A stretch of DNA of 31,752 nucleotides from a virus, in the IMG/VR virus record IMGVR_UViG_3300035701_000172, positions 1 through 31,752 of that record; one strand, written 5' to 3'. The stretch's first letter is position 1. Each line of letters opens with the position of its first letter. The notes beneath the pieces are model-generated. The model had not been told where the DNA came from and made no database searches. It worked only from the letters and a program-made list of their open reading frames with translations. The position numbers and the translations under genes were made by a program. Shown here piece after piece: positions 3,032 through 31,752 of this stretch.

Positions 3032-4618
3032 ATGGATTTTTCATTTTTTACCGTTGACAATAAGTCAGGATATAAAACACAAGAAAAATGGTTTAGTAAA
3101 AATTATTTTATAGAATACGAAAAAATTCTTAATTATTCTAATAAATTGAATATAGAAATGAACTTCAAAGAAAAAATTTGGTTTTATTATAATAATTTAA
3201 TAGAAAGACCTAAATGTATAACATGTGGAGGTGAAATTAAGTTTAGAAATAGATTTGATAAACCATATGGCGAATTTTGTTCATTATCTTGTATTAATTT
3301 AAATAAAGAAGAAATGATAAAAAGGCAAAAAGTAACTTTTCAGAAAAAATATAACATTAATTTTTATCCCCAACATAAAGATTTTCTTAGTAAACAAAGA
3401 AAAACCAAACTGGAAAGATATAACGATGAAAATTATAACAATTCAAGAAAAATGATCAACACTAAACTTAAAATTTACGGATCTGAAAATTATTGTAATC
3501 ATAATAAGTATGTTGAAACTTGTAAAGAAAAATATGGCGTAGAAAATTTTTCAAAAACAAAAGAATTTAAAAATATAATGGATGAAAGATTTCAAAAATT
3601 ATATTTAAATGTTAATATTATAAAAATATTAAAAAATAAAATTGAAATTAAATGTGATATATGTAATAAAATAAGTGAAATTGAAAAACATTTATTATAT
3701 GGTAGAATAAAACACGATCAAATTATTTGTCCCCTTTGTAACCCAATAGGCCAAAGTCAAAAGAGTGGTTATGAAATTAAAATATCCGAGTTTCTTGATG
3801 AACTTTTTATAAAACACATATCATCTGACAGAAAAACATTAACTAAACAAGAGTTAGATATTATTGTGCCAGAATTTAATTTAGCAATTGAATTTGATGG
3901 TGTGTACTGGCACAACGAATTATTTTTACCTTTCGATTATCATTTAAAAAAAACAATAGAATGCCAAGAAAAAAACATAGAATTAATTCATATTTTTGAA
4001 GATGAATGGGTAAATAAAAAAGAAATTGTTCAATCAATTATAAAGAATAGGTTACAAAAAACAGACAATACTTTATTTGCACGAAAATGTAGGATCAAAG
4101 AAATAGATCCAAAAATATGTAAAATATTTCTTGATGAAAATCACATTCAAGGAAATGTTAATTCCAAAATTAAAATCGGATTATATCATGATGATGAATT
4201 AGTGTCTGTTATGTCATTTTCAAAAGGTAGAATACTAATGAGTGGAAAAGCCAATGAATGGGAATTAACTAGATTTTGTAATAAAATAAATACTAACGTG
4301 GTGGGAGCAGCAGGAAAACTTTTTAATTATTTTGTTAAAAACTACTACCCAACAAAAATTGTATCATATTCGGATATTAGACTGTTTAATGGAAATATGT
4401 ATAAAAATTTGGGATTTGAGAAAATATCTCAGTCAAAGCCAAATTATTGGTATGTTATTAATGGAATAAGGTATCATCGATTTAATTTTAGAAAATCGAT
4501 TTTAATTAAAGAAGGATTTGATGTAAACAAAACAGAAAAAGAAATAATGTTTGACCGAAAGATATATAGAATTTACGATTGTGGACATATTCGATGGGAA
4601 TACAATGTACTTAAATAA
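3032..4618 (+). CDS. Free-standing homing endonuclease, EDxHD/Vsr-like
   Basis: A selfish DNA endonuclease inserted between tube and baseplate-assembly genes. Domains in order: an N-terminal zinc ribbon (C62, C65, C83, C87); about four short repeats with a YG-x-EN/NF core at residues 105-182, of the kind seen in DNA-binding arms of phage homing enzymes; a second zinc site (C208, C211, C233, C236); a Vsr/DUF559-like nuclease core (SGYE with E248, QELDIIVPEFNLAIEFDGVYWH with D276, D289, H294); and a C-terminal domain around 346-505 with a VSYSDIRLFNG-x-MYKNLGF signature shared by many phage homing enzymes. The assignment to the EDxHD group rests on the spacing of E, D and H. The gene is visibly more AT-rich than its neighbours and has its own promoter-like sequence, both signs of recent arrival. 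Neither neighbouring gene appears broken. Confidence 0.88.
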   Translation: MDFSFFTVDNKSGYKTQEKWFSKNYFIEYEKILNYSNKLNIEMNFKEKIWFYYNNLIERPKCITCGGEIKFRNRFDKPYGEFCSLSCINLNKEEMIKRQKVTFQKKYNINFYPQHKDFLSKQRKTKLERYNDENYNNSRKMINTKLKIYGSENYCNHNKYVETCKEKYGVENFSKTKEFKNIMDERFQKLYLNVNIIKILKNKIEIKCDICNKISEIEKHLLYGRIKHDQIICPLCNPIGQSQKSGYEIKISEFLDELFIKHISSDRKTLTKQELDIIVPEFNLAIEFDGVYWHNELFLPFDYHLKKTIECQEKNIELIHIFEDEWVNKKEIVQSIIKNRLQKTDNTLFARKCRIKEIDPKICKIFLDENHIQGNVNSKIKIGLYHDDELVSVMSFSKGRILMSGKANEWELTRFCNKINTNVVGAAGKLFNYFVKNYYPTKIVSYSDIRLFNGNMYKNLGFEKISQSKPNYWYVINGIRYHRFNFRKSILIKEGFDVNKTEKEIMFDRKIYRIYDCGHIRWEYNVLK

Positions 4619-22255: not shown

Positions 22256-22921
22256 ATGTCAAAGAAAATTTGTTGTAAATGTGAAATCGAAAAAGATTTT
22301 TTCGATTTTGGTAAATCATCAAGAAGTAAAGATGGATTAAATTATTCTTGTAAGGAATGTAATAATAAACGTAGTAAAGAATATTCCAAAGAGAATTATG
22401 ATAAAGTTTTAATGGCTCAACGAATATGGAGACAAAAGCATCCTGATTGGGTTAGTGATCGTAATAGAAAAAATTATATAAAATTTGGCGAAAAAAATAA
22501 ATTACGGGTGAAAATTTGGTATAAAAATAACCCAGAAAAAAAGAAAGAATATCGTGAGAATTATAATCCAAGAAAAAGAGAACGAAAAAAAGAAAGACAA
22601 CAATACGATCCAATTTATAAAATTACTAATAATATGAGATCTAGTTTACATAAATATATAAAAAAATTAAACATAACAAAGAGAAATAAAACATTTGAAA
22701 TTGTTGGAATATCACCATCAGAATTAAAGGAGTATTTAGAAAACCAATTTATCGATGGAATGAATTGGGAAAATCACGGACAATTTGGTTGGCATATTGA
22801 TCATAAAATACCATTAGATTCAGCAAAAACAGAAAATGAATTATATGAATTATGTCATTACACAAATTTACAACCTTTATGGTGGCTAGATAATATTCAT
22901 AAGTCATCTAAAATCGTTTGA
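22256..22921 (+). CDS. HNH endonuclease, free-standing homing type
   Basis: 221 aa. The N-terminal zinc-binding pair is C6-x2-C9 with C32-x2-C35 (CKCEIEKDFFDFGKSSRSKDG, shortened: CKC…YSCKEC). A very basic, Lys/Arg/Asn-rich middle (38-120) probably binds DNA. The HNH core is at about 178-215: WHIDHKIPLD (H180, D182, H183), N204 in YTNLQPLWW and N213/H215 in DNIHKS. The layout matches phage HNH homing enzymes. It is inserted between uvsX and the RNase H gene, 12 nt after uvsX, in a more AT-rich composition. Its stop codon overlaps the -33 element of the next promoter. Confidence 0.88.
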   Translation: MSKKICCKCEIEKDFFDFGKSSRSKDGLNYSCKECNNKRSKEYSKENYDKVLMAQRIWRQKHPDWVSDRNRKNYIKFGEKNKLRVKIWYKNNPEKKKEYRENYNPRKRERKKERQQYDPIYKITNNMRSSLHKYIKKLNITKRNKTFEIVGISPSELKEYLENQFIDGMNWENHGQFGWHIDHKIPLDSAKTENELYELCHYTNLQPLWWLDNIHKSSKIV

Positions 22922-26192: not shown

Positions 26193-29100
26193 ATGATAGA
26201 AAAAAATTACCAAGCCTATACCAAACAAGAAGTACTAAAAGCAACACTAAAATATTTTAATGGAGATGAATTAGCAGCAGATGTTTGGATTAAAAAATAC
26301 TGTTTAAAAGATGATAAAAATTATTATGAGTTAACTCCAGATGATATGCATCATAGAATCGCTAAAGAATTAGCGAGAATTGAAGCAAAATATCCCAATC
26401 CACTTAATGAAGATTATATTTATAATACTCTTAAAAATTTCGAAAGAATAGTTCCGCAAGGTTCACCAATGTCAGGAATTGGAAATGATTTTCAAGTGGT
26501 ATCACTTAGTAATTGCTTTGTGATCGGAAATGATGGCAATTCTGATAGTTATGGTGGAATAATGAAACTGGATCAAGAATTGGTACAATTAGAGAAAAGA
26601 CGAGGAGGGGTTGGATTAGATTTATCATTTGTTCGGCCAACAGGTAGTCCAGTGAAAAATAGTGCTATTACGAGCACAGGTGTTGTTCCATTCATGGAAA
26701 GATTTTCGAATAGCACAAAAGAGGTTGCGCAAGATGGTCGTCGAGGAGCATTGATGGAAAGCATATCAATAAAGCATCCAGATTCGGAAAAATTTATTGA
26801 TGCAAAATTAACACAAGGTAAAGTTACTGGCGCAAATATATCAATTAAATTGGATGACGATTTTATGAATGCAGCCATGAACGGAACGATGTACACTCAA
26901 CAATATCCAATAAAGGGAACTCCAAAATATATTAAAGATATAGACGCTCAAAAGCTTTGGAAAAAAATTATTTTTAATGCTTGGAAATCAGCCGAGCCAG
27001 GAATTCTTTATTGGGATCAAGTTATGCGTGAAAGTATTCCCGATTGCTACTCTGATTTGGGATTTACAACGGTGTCAACCAATCCTTGTCTTCCTGATAG
27101 TACATGGATTATGACACATATTGGACCTAGGCAAATTAAAGATTTGTTAGGAGAGTCGTTTTTTACATTAACAAACGGCATCAAAGATTTATCAACACAT
27201 AAAGGATTCTTTTACACAGGTAATAAAGAAACTTTTAAAATAAAAACTAAAAAAGGATATATTTTAGAAGGAACAGATAATCATAAAATTAAAGCCATTA
27301 AAAATAAGACGAGATACGGAAAGAAATATGAATGGTCTGAAATTAAAAATTTAAAGATTGGTGATAAAATATCTTTGGGTAATAATCGAGATGTTAAATG
27401 GGAGGGTGAAGGAAATTTTGAAGTTGGATGGCTTCTTGGAAATTTTGTTGGGGATGGGACTTCGTCAGGAAATTCTTATTCATTAAAATATTGGGGGACT
27501 AATAAAACCAATATGAAGGAACAAGCCGTTAATTTTATTAAAAATAATTTAAATTACAGATCTGATTTAGGCACTGATAAGAATATCGATATTTTAGTAA
27601 AAGGAGTAAAAAGTAGTGAATTAAAAATTATTGGAGAAAAATTTGGGGTGTTTTCAAATAAAGAAATTAATAATGAAATAATCGAAAGAACATCTTCTGA
27701 TTTTTATAGTGGATTCATCTCTGGATTATTTGATGCTGATGGAACTGTTTTACACAACAAAGATAAAGGAATTAATGTTAGATTATCGTCATCCAAGATA
27801 GAGTTGTGTAAGTTAGTTCAAAGAATGTTATCAAGGATGGGAATAATATCAACCATTTATGAAAATAGAAGAGACAAACAAATGAGAGCAATGCCCGACG
27901 GAAGAGGAGGAAGTAAGGAGTATTTAATGCAGTCGTGTCATGAATTGGTCATATCCAAAGATAATGTTTTAGAATTTCAAAAAAGAATAAATTTTACGGA
28001 TGAAGAAAAATATAGTAAATTAGATTTAGCAATTTTGAGTTTGGACATAAGAGGATTATATTCTGAATCATTTGATGACGAAATAGTATCGATTACTCCA
28101 TGTGGATTTTCCGATGTCTATGATTGTCAAATAATTAGAACACACGAATTTGACGCAAATGGAATAATTGTTCATAATTGTGGCGAAATCCCGCTTTGTC
28201 CTGATGATAGTTGTCGCTTACTGGCAATAAATTTATTTGGGTATGTGGAAAATCCATTTACCGAAAACGCCGAATTTCAATGGGATTTGTTTGCTTGGGA
28301 TGTTGAAGCAGCTCAAAGATATATGGATGATATAATTGACTTGGAACTCGAAAAGATTGATGCAATATTAGCAAAAATACAATCGGATCCAGAAGATGAG
28401 TTTTTAAAGTTATATGAGATCAAGCTTTGGGAAAGAATTAAGGATAAAACAATAAGAGGTCGAAGAACTGGTCTTGGAGTAACAGGAGAAGGTGATATGT
28501 TGGCGGCTTTGGGATATAGATATGGTACTGATGAAGCCACGGATTTTAGTGAAGAAGTTCATGAAAGTCTGAAAATGTGTGCTTACGAATCCTCAATGAT
28601 AATGGCAAAAGAGCGTGGGACTTTCCCAATATTCTCCGCAAAACGTGAGGAGAATAACCCATTTATTCTCCGTATTAAAGAGAAAAATCCTTCATTTTAT
28701 GAATCAATGAGGAGAAATGGACGCAGAAATATTGCTTTACTTACAATTGCCCCAACTGGAACAGTTAGTTTAATGACACAAACAACTTCTGGTATTGAAC
28801 CATGTTTTTCACCAGTTTATATGAGACGTAGAAAGATTAATCCACAGGAAAAAGATGTTCGTGTTGATTTTGTCGATGAAGAAGGCATTGCGTGGCAAGA
28901 ATATCCTGTATTTCATCATAAATTTAAAATATGGCTTGAGGTAAATGGATATGATGTTGAAATGTTAAAACACAACAAATTAGGTGATCTTCAAGAAATA
29001 ATAGAAACATCGCCATACTATAAAGCAACAGCAAATGATGTTGATTGGGTTAAAAAAGTTGAAATGCAAGGAAGATTACAAAAGCATGTCGATCATAGTA

Positions 29101-29846
29101 TATCAGTAACCGTTAATCTTCCAAAAGAAACGACAGAAGAAATGGTCGCAAAGGTATATGAAACAGGATGGAGAAGTAGTTGTAAAGGAGTAACAATATA
29201 TAGAGACGGATCTCGTAGTGGCGTGTTAGTCGATGCAGAAAAGAAAGAAGAACAATTTCATGAAATTCACGCCCCAAAACGTCCAAAGAGATTAAAAGGA
29301 GAAATTCATCGTTTTCAGAATAATCTTGAAAAATGGATAGCAGTTGTTGGATTGAAGGATGGAAGGCCATATGAAATATTTACAGGAAAGCTTGAAAACG
29401 GACTGATTGATTTACCATCAACAATTAAAGAATGTGAAGTTGTAAAAAATGTTATAGATGTTGAAGAATGTATGGAAAATGGTGTGTTGGTTAAGATAAA
29501 AAAGAAAAGATATGACATTGAATATGTTGATGGCGACGGTAATAAGCAAATTCTTACGGGTTTAAATCATGCATTTAACCCCGAATTTTGGAATTATGCT
29601 AAATTAATATCGGGAGTTTTAAGACACGGTATGCCCATGGTTTATGTATATGAGTTAATTGATTCTATGACATTTAAAGAAGATTACATCAATACATGGA
29701 AAAATGGCGTGGCTCGTGTTGTTAAAAAATACACTAAAGATGGAGAAAAAGCCAAAGGTAAATGTTCTGAGTGTGGCAGCGAGCATCTTGAATTCAAAGA
29801 AGGTTGTTTAACATGTATGGCGTGCGGTTCATCTCGGTGCTCCTAA
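26193..29846 (+). CDS. nrdJ: Class II (B12-dependent) ribonucleotide reductase with intein
   Basis: Reduces ribonucleotides to deoxyribonucleotides using adenosylcobalamin. The precursor is 1217 aa; removing the intein (residues 299-662) leaves 853 aa, a normal NrdJ length. Family marks: VPQGSPMSGIGND then SLSNCFVI (C108, reducing cysteine), KRRGGVGLDLSFVRPTG, QDGRRGALMESI, and STNP joined by splicing to CGEIPLCPDDSCRLL (thiyl-radical C at spliced 299, partner C at spliced 310). RTGLGVTGEGDMLAALGY, LTIAPTGTVSLM and SGIEPCFSPVYMRR follow. The C-terminal zinc-type Cys motif CSECG…CLTCMACGSSRCS carries the redox-active pair. The enzyme is inactive until splicing because the insertion precedes the radical cysteine. 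No class I subunit is visible nearby. The stop is followed by a 57-nt gap without an obvious terminator. Confidence 0.93.
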   Translation: MIEKNYQAYTKQEVLKATLKYFNGDELAADVWIKKYCLKDDKNYYELTPDDMHHRIAKELARIEAKYPNPLNEDYIYNTLKNFERIVPQGSPMSGIGNDFQVVSLSNCFVIGNDGNSDSYGGIMKLDQELVQLEKRRGGVGLDLSFVRPTGSPVKNSAITSTGVVPFMERFSNSTKEVAQDGRRGALMESISIKHPDSEKFIDAKLTQGKVTGANISIKLDDDFMNAAMNGTMYTQQYPIKGTPKYIKDIDAQKLWKKIIFNAWKSAEPGILYWDQVMRESIPDCYSDLGFTTVSTNPCLPDSTWIMTHIGPRQIKDLLGESFFTLTNGIKDLSTHKGFFYTGNKETFKIKTKKGYILEGTDNHKIKAIKNKTRYGKKYEWSEIKNLKIGDKISLGNNRDVKWEGEGNFEVGWLLGNFVGDGTSSGNSYSLKYWGTNKTNMKEQAVNFIKNNLNYRSDLGTDKNIDILVKGVKSSELKIIGEKFGVFSNKEINNEIIERTSSDFYSGFISGLFDADGTVLHNKDKGINVRLSSSKIELCKLVQRMLSRMGIISTIYENRRDKQMRAMPDGRGGSKEYLMQSCHELVISKDNVLEFQKRINFTDEEKYSKLDLAILSLDIRGLYSESFDDEIVSITPCGFSDVYDCQIIRTHEFDANGIIVHNCGEIPLCPDDSCRLLAINLFGYVENPFTENAEFQWDLFAWDVEAAQRYMDDIIDLELEKIDAILAKIQSDPEDEFLKLYEIKLWERIKDKTIRGRRTGLGVTGEGDMLAALGYRYGTDEATDFSEEVHESLKMCAYESSMIMAKERGTFPIFSAKREENNPFILRIKEKNPSFYESMRRNGRRNIALLTIAPTGTVSLMTQTTSGIEPCFSPVYMRRRKINPQEKDVRVDFVDEEGIAWQEYPVFHHKFKIWLEVNGYDVEMLKHNKLGDLQEIIETSPYYKATANDVDWVKKVEMQGRLQKHVDHSISVTVNLPKETTEEMVAKVYETGWRSSCKGVTIYRDGSRSGVLVDAEKKEEQFHEIHAPKRPKRLKGEIHRFQNNLEKWIAVVGLKDGRPYEIFTGKLENGLIDLPSTIKECEVVKNVIDVEECMENGVLVKIKKKRYDIEYVDGDGNKQILTGLNHAFNPEFWNYAKLISGVLRHGMPMVYVYELIDSMTFKEDYINTWKNGVARVVKKYTKDGEKAKGKCSECGSEHLEFKEGCLTCMACGSSRCS
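27087..28178 (+). mobile_element. LAGLIDADG intein in nrdJ (364 aa)
   Basis: A self-splicing protein element within the reductase. It starts at Cys (TGT 27087-27089, CLPDSTWI), has the block B TxxH motif as TDNH in YILEGTDNHKIKAI, and ends with block F/G YDCQIIRTHEFDANGIIVHN at 28176-28178. The +1 residue is the Cys of CGEIPL. Two LAGLIDADG helices are present: WLLGNFVGDG (about residue 411 of the precursor) and FISGLFDADG (about 508). The homing endonuclease therefore looks intact. The flanking extein STNP/CGEIPL is a known favoured insertion site in reductases. All splice residues (C1, block B T and H, penultimate H, terminal N, C+1) are present, so splicing is expected to be active. Confidence 0.95.
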
Positions 29847-29903: not shown

Positions 29904-30623
29904 ATGAAAATAACAGATGTTCTAATTACTATTTTGTACGAAGAAAGCATTAGAGAGATAAATGATATTATCCTCGAACAAGAACAGCAAAATATAAGAG
30001 AATTAAGTGACGAAACAAAAAAACAAATACAAGAAATTGGTGGTTTATTCGGCAGAGGATATGCCAGATGGATAATAATACGATTAATGGATAAATCACT
30101 AAAAGAAGAAGACATATACAAATATAAACAATTTTTTAAATATTTTGAAGAAGGAAAAAAATTAGGTCATTTTAAAGAAAATGACATACTAAAATATAAA
30201 AATCCTATCGTGTTCGAAAAAGAAGTAATTAAAAGTCACGAAGCCATAACAAGATATCAAGGTAATGAGTTAGTAAATACTAAAAATTATGTATCAATAT
30301 CCCAAATTCAACAGTTAGAAAAAACCGGAATTAAATTTCTGGGAATTACGGCCAACGGATATCAGGTATTTAAAATTCCTAAAGGATTGGGTAAAAATCA
30401 AGAAGCGTTCCAAGCACAAAAATCCCTGTTAGGAAGATGCAAAGGAAGACAATCAGGTGAAGACATTTCAATCTGTACAATGGGAAATATTTCTCATTTT
30501 AATAATTATTTATCTACGGATGATTTATATGTTTTTTTTAATTTGAATGATGATCTATCACCATATCAATTTCATTATGCATCAAATAGCTTTATGGATA
30601 AAAACGATCATTCAATAGTATGA
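29904..30623 (+). CDS. Unknown 239-aa phage protein (YQFHY-FMDKND family), putative virion protein
   Basis: The N-terminal 27 residues form an amphipathic helix (ITILYEESIREINDIILEQ) like the start of gene 18792. A helical middle (35-120) follows, with GGLFGRGYARWIIIRL at 46-61. The C-terminal domain (about 140-239) has KFLGITANGYQVFKIPKG, LLGRCKGRQSGEDISICT, NNYLSTDDLYVFFNLNDD and SPYQFHYASNSFMDKND. The last two segments are a recurring module in large phages (LYV..N..D…YQFH….FMD.ND), often next to or fused with leucine-rich-like repeats as here. Its function is not established to my knowledge. An ATG at 29897 is out of frame and quickly closed, so 29904 is preferred. The gene ends 9 nt before the first repeat gene. 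Confidence 0.75.
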   Translation: MKITDVLITILYEESIREINDIILEQEQQNIRELSDETKKQIQEIGGLFGRGYARWIIIRLMDKSLKEEDIYKYKQFFKYFEEGKKLGHFKENDILKYKNPIVFEKEVIKSHEAITRYQGNELVNTKNYVSISQIQQLEKTGIKFLGITANGYQVFKIPKGLGKNQEAFQAQKSLLGRCKGRQSGEDISICTMGNISHFNNYLSTDDLYVFFNLNDDLSPYQFHYASNSFMDKNDHSIV

Positions 30624-30632
30624 AACATATAA

Positions 30633-31079
30633 ATGAAAGAAGATCTTGCCAAATATTTTTTTGATTTTTTAGATCAAAAGGAAGAAAGAAAAATTCCTTT
30701 CAGATTAAAATTATTGCATTTTCCAGAAAAAATAACAAAAGATGATTTATCGGTTGGAGGCGATCTCGATTTATATGGAACGCCCATAACTTCCCTGCCA
30801 GAAGGTTTATCGGTTGGAGGCAATCTCGATTTATGGAGAACGCCCATAACCTCCCTGCCAAAAGGTTTATCGGTTGGAGGCCATCTCAATTTACGGGGAA
30901 CACCCATAACTTCCCTGCCAGAAGGTTTATCGGTTGGAGGCTATCTCAATTTATATGGAACGCCCATAACCTCCCTGCCAGAAGGTTTATCGGTTGGAGG
31001 CAATCTCAATTTACGGAGAACGCCCATAACTTCCCTGCCAAAAGATTTATTGGTTAAAGGTAAAATATATCATAAATGA
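30633..31079 (+). CDS. Leucine-rich-like repeat protein, copy A (148 aa)
   Basis: An N-terminal cap of 38 residues (MKEDLAKYFFDFLDQKEERK, then a basic strand and FPEKITKDD) is followed by five perfect-length 20-residue repeats (39-138) of consensus L-S-V-G-G-x-L-x-L-x-x-T-P-I-T-S-L-P-[EK]-G, then a degenerate half repeat LLVKGKIYHK. Regular L/V/L/L/I/L spacing predicts a beta-solenoid or leucine-rich-repeat-like rod. Variable residues fall at repeat positions 6, 8, 10 and 11. There is no signal peptide or membrane anchor. The TGA stop overlaps the ATG of copy B (ATGA). Function unknown; a binding surface is inferred from the variability pattern. Confidence 0.85.
   Translation: MKEDLAKYFFDFLDQKEERKIPFRLKLLHFPEKITKDDLSVGGDLDLYGTPITSLPEGLSVGGNLDLWRTPITSLPKGLSVGGHLNLRGTPITSLPEGLSVGGYLNLYGTPITSLPEGLSVGGNLNLRRTPITSLPKDLLVKGKIYHK
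30747..31046 (+). repeat. 60-nt coding tandem repeat, array A (5 units)
   Basis: Five units of exactly 60 nt with most bases invariant (core TTATCGGTTGGAGGC and CATAAC[TC]TCCCTGCCA). The differences cluster at the codons for repeat positions 6, 8, 10 and 11, mostly at first or second codon bases. The array ends in a degenerate unit at 31047-31079. Confidence 0.95.
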
Positions 31080-31752
31080 AAGAAGATCTTGCCAAATATT
31101 TTTTTGATTTTTTAGATCAAAAGGAAGAAAGAAAAATTCCTTTCAGATTAAAATTATTGTATTTTCCAGAAAAAATAACGAAAGATGATTTATCGGTTGG
31201 CGGCAATCTCAATTTAGAGGAAACACGCATAACTTCCCTGCCAGAAGGTTTATCGGTTGGAGGCAATCTCAATTTAGCGGAAACACCCATAACTTCCCTG
31301 CCAAAAGGTTTATCGGTTGGAGGCAATCTCAGTTTAGCGGGTACACGCATAACTTCCCTGCCAGAAGGTTTATCGGTTGGCGGCAATCTCGATTTATATA
31401 GAACGCCCATAACTTCCCTGCCAGAAGGTTTATCGGTTGGAGGCAATCTCAATTTAGCGGAAACACGCATAACTTCCCTGCCAGAAGGTTTATCGGTTGG
31501 AGGCTATCTCAGTTTAGCGGGAACACGCATAACTTCCCTGCCAGAAGGTTTATCGGTTGGAGGCAATCTCAATTTAGCGGAAACACGCATAACTTCCCTG
31601 CCAGAAGGTTTATCGGTTGGAGGCTATCTCAATTTAGCGAAAACGCCCATAACTTCCCTGCCAGAAGGTTTATCGGTTGGAGGCTATCTCAGTTTATGGG
31701 GAACGCCCATAACTTCCCTGCCAGAAGGTTTATCGGTTGGAGGCTATCTCAG
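31076..31752 (+). CDS. Leucine-rich-like repeat protein, copy B, 3' end outside window
   Basis: Starts at the ATG that overlaps the stop of copy A and runs open to the window end (225 full codons). The first 38 residues match copy A apart from one change (LLHFPEK becomes LLYFPEK); at nucleotide level the first 114 bases differ at only two places. Nine full 20-residue repeats and the start of a tenth follow. Compared with copy A, position 13 is variable (P or R) and position 10 is mostly Ala. The overlap ATGA suggests translational coupling. It is clearly a tandem duplicate of 30633-31079 that has since expanded. Confidence 0.9.
   Translation, partial: MKEDLAKYFFDFLDQKEERKIPFRLKLLYFPEKITKDDLSVGGNLNLEETRITSLPEGLSVGGNLNLAETPITSLPKGLSVGGNLSLAGTRITSLPEGLSVGGNLDLYRTPITSLPEGLSVGGNLNLAETRITSLPEGLSVGGYLSLAGTRITSLPEGLSVGGNLNLAETRITSLPEGLSVGGYLNLAKTPITSLPEGLSVGGYLSLWGTPITSLPEGLSVGGYL
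31190..31752 (+). repeat. 60-nt coding tandem repeat, array B (at least 9 units, continues)
   Basis: Nine complete 60-nt units to 31729 and 23 nt of a tenth. Same core as array A. Position-6 codons vary only in the first base (AAT, TAT here; GAT and CAT also in array A); position-13 codons alternate CCC and CGC. Units 5 and 7 encode the same peptide, which suggests recent duplication or gene conversion. Confidence 0.95.

What the first reader, a model, noticed from the sequence alone, without database searches (positions are those of the whole stretch)
30747..31752. Repeat arrays with variation confined to one face of a predicted solenoid
Seen: at least 14 complete 60-nt units share an almost fixed backbone, yet amino acids vary freely at repeat positions 6 (D/N/H/Y), 8 (D/N/S), 10 (Y/W/R/E/A), 11 (G/R/E/K) and 13 (P/R). 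These alternate with the fixed L7, L9, T12 and I14. The changes are mostly at first and second codon bases, while third bases and the rest of the unit barely change. Inference: alternating residues on a beta-strand face outward, so the variable set would line one exposed surface. The array looks like a recombining, diversifying binding surface, in principle like other repeat-based recognition proteins. Ligand unknown.
Basis: partly seen in the sequence, partly recalled or inferred. Interest (0 to 1): 0.76.

Follow-up and report, generated by a model that had tools for sequence, protein, structure and literature searches.

The report
Phage leucine-rich-repeat proteins with variable face
The repeats are two side-by-side phage genes for small horseshoe-shaped leucine-rich-repeat proteins whose inner, target-gripping surface varies while the frame stays fixed; they belong to a large, little-described gene family of uncultured phages (at least 36 copies in one 270-kb virus) that probably binds changing host proteins.

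Summary
There are 14 complete 60-nt units plus one partial unit, in two tandem, translationally coupled ORFs: A, 30633-31079, and B, 31076 to the contig end. Each unit is a 20-residue leucine-rich repeat (LRR). The five variable positions are the exposed positions of the LRR strand: 74% of differences between A and B units fall in these 5 of 20 codons, while the N-terminal caps differ at 2 of 114 nt. An AlphaFold model (pLDDT 92) is an LRR solenoid.

New here: the genes belong to a large phage family (241 IMG/VR contigs, few isolate relatives) arranged in co-directional operons; one 270-kb phage has at least 36 copies. In relatives the same positions evolve with dN/dS about 1.0, against 0.3 for the backbone: lack of constraint or diversification, not proven positive selection. 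No reverse transcriptase was found in 12 phage records, arguing against a DGR.

The gene just upstream (29904-30623) is a conserved partner: it precedes LRR genes in four other phages, is fused to the LRR in a fifth, and has a homologue annotated as a virion protein by mass spectrometry in phage PA5oct.

Most likely: intracellular, possibly virion-delivered binders of variable host proteins. Target and delivery are inferred.

The parts
29904..30623 (+). Partner gene, 239 aa (called CT domain here after its ICTM/WCT motif)
   Evidence: 36% identical over 233 aa to the gene upstream of the LRR gene in L047; same order in L125, L129, L133 and fused to an LRR array in L131; PA5oct homologue annotated ESI-MS/MS virion protein
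30633..31079 (+). LRR gene A, 148 aa, complete
   Evidence: ORF; Pfam LRR_1 21.8 bits, cut-off 20.6
30633..30746 (+). N-terminal helical cap of A (38 aa)
   Evidence: 2 of 114 nt differ from the cap of B; helices in the model of B
30747..31046 (+). Five LRR units of A
31047..31079 (+). C-terminal end of A (LLVKGKIYHK, stop)
   Evidence: short form of the IKG.IY end seen in relatives
31076..31752 (+). LRR gene B, at least 225 aa, cut by the contig end; its ATG overlaps A's TGA (ATGA)
   Evidence: Pfam LRR_4 37.7 bits, cut-off 27; AlphaFold pLDDT 92
31076..31189 (+). N-terminal helical cap of B
31190..31752 (+). Nine complete LRR units of B and a 23-nt partial tenth

Best explanation
Genes A and B encode small single-domain LRR solenoids, probably intracellular (no signal peptide is apparent in the sequence), of a multigene phage family. 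A fixed frame (L1, V3, L7, L9, T12, I14, L17, P18) carries a concave face made of positions 6, 8, 10, 11 and 13. Point changes at these codons, plus duplication and recombination of units and genes, produce new faces. The proteins most likely bind variable host proteins during infection, such as defence or takeover targets. They probably work with the protein encoded just upstream, whose homologue is annotated as a virion protein, so the module may be carried in the head and ejected with the DNA, as T4 internal proteins are. Shown: predicted fold, position of the variation, family size, operon structure, partner conservation, a partner-LRR fusion. Inferred: binding, host target, and delivery of the LRR proteins themselves.
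For: LRR fold: Pfam, AlphaFold and Foldseek/VIA matches. Variation on the exposed LRR positions in the window and in relatives. Unit gain/loss and cluster turnover between close relatives. Tandem, coupled operons, 122 of 122 neighbouring pairs co-directional; at least 36 genes in one phage. Partner conservation and fusion; virion annotation of the partner homologue; head-gene neighbours in relatives.
Against: Family-A face dN/dS is about 1, so relaxed constraint is not excluded. The window's LRR proteins have no protease-like N-terminal targeting peptide, and their cap is internal in the L131 fusion. In the 270-kb phage the partner is not beside the LRR islands. Partner fold and function unknown. 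No target known.
Confidence: 0.45

Rival explanations
1. Early-expressed host-takeover or anti-defence binders: same recognition role, but made in the infected cell and not carried in the virion.
For: The LRR gene of Edwardsiella phage Edno5 lies between the CI repressor region and exodeoxyribonuclease VIII/RecT, and that of EBPR podovirus 1 lies upstream of RecT/exo. In the window and L004/G005 the genes are by replication genes. Window LRR proteins lack a targeting peptide.
Against: Head-gene neighbours in many relatives, partner homologue annotated as a virion protein, targeting-like N-terminal peptides in families B and C.
Confidence: 0.35
2. Virion-surface or tail adhesins: the variable face binds cell-surface receptors and sets host range.
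For: LRR adhesion proteins exist; a diverse LRR-like protein in the tail module of a vibriophage has been proposed to act in host interaction (PMC10945359); a weak match lies in a Lactobacillus phage c5 protein annotated 'putative antireceptor'.
Against: Small stand-alone proteins in tens of copies per genome in dispersed islands; in the window they are far from the tail genes and beside ribonucleotide reductase; no tail-attachment domain in A, which is complete.
Confidence: 0.12
3. Face variation is mainly neutral: exposed residues are free to drift while duplication and conversion keep the frame uniform; no adaptive diversification.
For: Family-A face dN/dS 1.03, not above 1; overall nonsynonymous share in the window as random (P = 0.44).
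Against: Other exposed positions stay much more constrained (backbone 0.31, positions 2, 5, 15, 16 invariant in the window); family B 2.99 against backbone 0.52; rapid cluster turnover between relatives.
Confidence: 0.25
4. Diversity-generating retroelement target: adenines in face codons are mutagenised by reverse transcription.
For: Codon 6 shows NAT and codon 8 shows changes at A.
Against: No PF00078 reverse transcriptase in the window record or 11 related records (several are fragments). Variable columns with no A at all: codon 10 bases 1 and 3, codon 13 C/G. Variation is spread over many units and genes.
Confidence: 0.02

Closest known systems
LRR protein in the polar flagellar motor structure 8z5u/8z5w/8z60
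   Same: Closest solved relative of the repeat subtype: phmmer E 4.5e-38, VIA Z 23.6 over 173 residues, 38% identity
   Different: A cellular motor component; its repeats are diverged, not near-identical with a variable face; function not comparable
Bacterial 20-residue LRR domains of the SspH/SlrP/IpaH/YopM class
   Same: Same repeat length and LP..L..L.L....L framework; structural matches with Z about 15-18
   Different: Those are effectors of bacteria with extra catalytic or secretion parts; gene A is a complete 148-aa protein with none
LRR proteins annotated in uncultured phages and Edwardsiella phage Edno5
   Same: Same LRR subtype
   Different: Annotation only; no description of the gene family, its operons or its partner was found in the papers searched
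Plant NLR and jawless-vertebrate VLR receptor LRRs
   Same: Variation on the exposed LxxLxLxx positions with a conserved core (PMC8226289)
   Different: Host immune receptors with signalling domains or somatic assembly; here phage genes with neither
T4 internal head proteins (IPI, Alt) and phiKZ inner-body proteins
   Same: Working precedent for phage proteins injected to act on the host (PMC9026906; PMC13282480)
   Different: No sequence relation; targeting peptide not found on the window's LRR proteins

Membership tests
Leucine-rich repeat superfamily | Repeated LxxLxLxx(N/T)xL motif in tandem | tested here: met
   14 units; LRR_4 and LRR_1 over cut-off; T replaces N at motif position 9 and G stands at position 1
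Leucine-rich repeat superfamily | Solenoid fold with parallel strands | tested here: met
   Predicted only: pLDDT 92, matches to solved LRR structures
IpaH/SspH-type LRR effectors | C-terminal E3 ligase domain after the LRR | tested here: not met
   Gene A is complete at 148 aa without it; the end of B is not in the contig
Immune-type diversifying LRR surface | Variation concentrated on exposed strand positions | tested here: met
Immune-type diversifying LRR surface | dN/dS above 1 at face positions | tested here: inconclusive
   Family A 1.03; family B 2.99 with p = 0.11; window units 0.365/0.091 but not independent
Diversity-generating retroelement target | Reverse transcriptase in the genome | tested here: inconclusive
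   None in 12 records, but the window and several others are fragments
Diversity-generating retroelement target | Substitutions confined to template adenines | tested here: not met
   Variable columns without A at codons 10 and 13
T4-type injected internal head protein | N-terminal capsid-targeting peptide ending at a protease site (I/L-x-E in T4) | tested here: not met
   A and B: no such site in the N-cap by reading the sequence, and the cap is internal in the L131 fusion. The partner gene does have LYE-13 and ILE-26, unproven
T4-type injected internal head protein | Present in the virion | not testable with these tools
   Only a homologue of the partner is annotated as a virion protein (PA5oct EST35_0205); no data for LRR proteins

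The most novel reading that the evidence does not exclude
Uncultured large phages carry a virion-delivered repertoire of tens of LRR proteins with hypervariable binding faces, renewed by recombination of units and genes, that recognise and neutralise variable host proteins on entry: a viral counterpart of immune LRR repertoires.
Probability: 0.22. Interest if true: 0.87.

Novelty: new variant of a known kind. Interest (0 to 1): 0.6.

Why it matters
A binding scaffold known for hypervariable recognition in animal and plant immunity appears here on the attacking side, as a large operonic gene family in phages with almost no cultured relatives. If the faces bind host defence proteins, the family would be a catalogue of evolved binders and a handle on unknown defences. 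The partner gene gives a concrete, testable link to the virion.

Tried and rejected
DGR: no reverse transcriptase and no adenine restriction. The N-cap of the window's LRR proteins as a capsid-targeting peptide: rejected, because the cap is internal in the L131 fusion and has no protease-like site. T4-type late promoter TATAAATA: 9 hits against 7.6 expected, uninformative. Fold of the partner domain: no match better than Foldseek E 2.8 or VIA Z 4.8; the model is only moderate (pLDDT 81, pTM 0.54), so a known fold is not excluded. PADLOC: nothing. NCBIfam: only type III effector LRR models, far below cut-off. Pfam IS4 transposase hit on the partner (E 0.007, below cut-off): taken as chance. Literature on 8z5u: none in the library. 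Per-residue accessibility could not be measured because model coordinates are not exposed. The three-unit difference between L006 and L021 could be an assembly collapse at the 67-nt identical copies.

Full report
What is there. The window is a whole 31,752-base IMG/VR record, probably a fragment, of a contractile-tailed phage: tail sheath, tail tube and baseplate genes, then single-strand binding protein, methyltransferase, UvsX-like recombinase, exonuclease, helicase and a ribonucleotide reductase with an intein. At its right end lie a 239-aa gene (29904-30623), LRR gene A (30633-31079) and LRR gene B (31076 to the contig end). A and B overlap by ATGA. They share a 38-aa N-terminal cap that differs at 2 of 114 nt, while their first five units differ at 34 of 300 nt. 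A has five 60-nt units; B has nine and part of a tenth.

Is the pattern more than chance. Nonsynonymous differences concentrate in codons 6, 8, 10, 11 and 13: pN 0.365 and pS 0.091 there, against 0.016 and 0.078 elsewhere. Fourteen of 19 distinct substitution states fall in these five codons, and no random placement out of 20,001 equalled that. Between A and B, 235 of 318 unit differences (74%) lie in the 25% of nucleotides that make up these codons. Units arise by duplication and conversion and are not independent, so these numbers show position, not strength of selection; the nonsynonymous share overall is no higher than random (P = 0.44).

What it is. Pfam LRR_4 (B) and LRR_1 (A) pass their cut-offs. 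The AlphaFold model of B has pLDDT 92 and pTM 0.84, with short strands at unit positions 2-3 and 7-8 and a helical N-cap. The best sequence and structure match is an LRR protein in a cryo-EM structure of a polar flagellar motor (8z5u; E 4.5e-38, Z 23.6), followed by LRR domains of SHOC2, SlrP, YopM, IpaH and SspH1. In LRR numbering the variable positions are 3, 5, 7, 8 and 10, the exposed residues on and beside the concave strand; the leucines between them point inward. This array is used to predict binding sites in plant immune receptors (PMC8226289). I could not compute accessibility from the model, so exposure is inferred from the motif and DSSP.

The family. Two scans of IMG/VR gave 35 and then 241 related stretches. 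In 65 non-redundant loci there are 187 LRR ORFs; all 122 neighbouring LRR pairs are co-directional, most with 1-nt or 4-nt overlaps, the arrangement seen in the window. L010 has a run of eleven such genes. A 270-kb phage record has 66 LRR matches and at least 36 genes in several islands on both strands; two 107-kb records have 39 and 37 matches. In 50,697 isolate phage records only Edwardsiella phage Edno5, EBPR podovirus 1, a 1.9-kb Escherichia phage record and, weakly, Lactobacillus phage c5 matched. Three common N-terminal types occur: the window's helical cap (A), MIKLLDLLENKILVPRRS.EER (B) and MKKIKLTESDLYRIIKQVL.EQ (C). In one 256-kb phage, N-termini like type C also begin two proteins that are not LRR proteins, so that peptide looks like a movable targeting signal. 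This is a lead, not a test of delivery.

How it evolves. Entropy over 178 units of 29 genes is highest at positions 10, 11, 6, 13, 2, 19 and 8. In independent best-match pairs, face dN/dS is 1.03 against 0.31 for the backbone (37 family-A pairs; N:S contrast p = 6e-11) and 2.99 against 0.52 (three family-B pairs; contrast p = 2e-4). These are best matches, not proven orthologues, and the family-A N-cap (0.69) is not significantly different from the face (p = 0.16). Two 12.6-kb stretches from different contigs differ at one base, which is at LRR position 11; another pair has one of 11 differences at position 8. L006 and L021 differ by a 180-nt, three-unit block bounded by 67-nt identical copies, as expected for recombination between units, though assembly collapse is possible. 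Between L010 and L015 the flanks are 82-89% identical but the LRR cluster is rearranged. No reverse transcriptase was found in 12 records.

The partner. The gene upstream of A is 36% identical over 233 aa to L047:3950-4651, which also sits between an intein-bearing ribonucleotide reductase and an LRR gene. Homologues lie directly upstream of LRR genes in L125, L128 (the same contig as L047), L129 and L133, and in L131 the partner domain and an LRR array with a cap like the window's form one 361-aa ORF. A more distant family with a WCT motif (pairwise E 0.002) lies a median 3 nt from LRR genes in eight loci; that the two families are related is not firmly shown. In L130 and L122 the partner domain is followed by other, apparently helical, repeats. 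A profile of both families together hits 6 of 7 LRR phages; I have no rate for phages without LRR genes. The homologue in Pseudomonas phage PA5oct, EST35_0205, is annotated 'structural protein, ESI-MS/MS'. LRR clusters in relatives are often near major head protein, head maturation protease and portal genes.

Mechanism. The best reading is a set of intracellular LRR binders whose faces change to follow changing host targets, possibly delivered with the partner in the head. T4 IPI, an internal protein that blocks a host restriction enzyme, is the working precedent (PMC9026906). The steps 'binds', 'host target' and 'delivered' are inferred. The window's own LRR proteins lack a cleavable targeting peptide, so delivery would need the partner or another route; early expression in the cell is nearly as likely.

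Novelty. LRR proteins in phages are known by annotation, and one diverse LRR-like vibriophage protein has been discussed (PMC10945359), in a paper that also cites a survey of LRRs in double-stranded DNA viruses, which I could not read. The multigene operonic family, its variable face and its fused, virion-linked partner were not found in the papers searched, a library that lacks most subscription journals. I rate it a new variant of a known kind.

Noticed in passing
window 26193-29846: Ribonucleotide reductase large subunit interrupted by an intein with a LAGLIDADG domain; the same enzyme, also with an intein, precedes the partner-LRR genes in L047.
   Followed up: partly
L122:1479-3902 and L130:4001-5266: The partner domain is followed by other repeat types (HP.A...L...L-like and LSE.FI..-like repeats) instead of LRRs, suggesting a general partner-plus-solenoid arrangement.
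   Followed up: partly
L010:4135-4836: An iron/manganese superoxide dismutase gene (Pfam Sod_Fe_N and Sod_Fe_C) lies beside the eleven-gene LRR cluster.
   Followed up: no
L044:4956-6149 and L066:4986-6119: LRR arrays fused to related C-terminal regions (motif ..YRIITGAC...Y.VRE.I..TRGQYG) with no Pfam match over cut-off other than LRR.
   Followed up: no
L005:4417-7383 and L150: LRR arrays embedded in long, multi-module proteins, with targeting-like peptides inside; they read like polyproteins.
   Followed up: no
window 3032-4618: A 528-aa ORF between the tail tube and baseplate hub genes that reads like a free-standing endonuclease (own reading of the sequence, not searched).
   Followed up: no
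window 22256-22921: A 221-aa ORF between the UvsX-like and exonuclease genes that reads like an HNH endonuclease (own reading, not searched).
   Followed up: no
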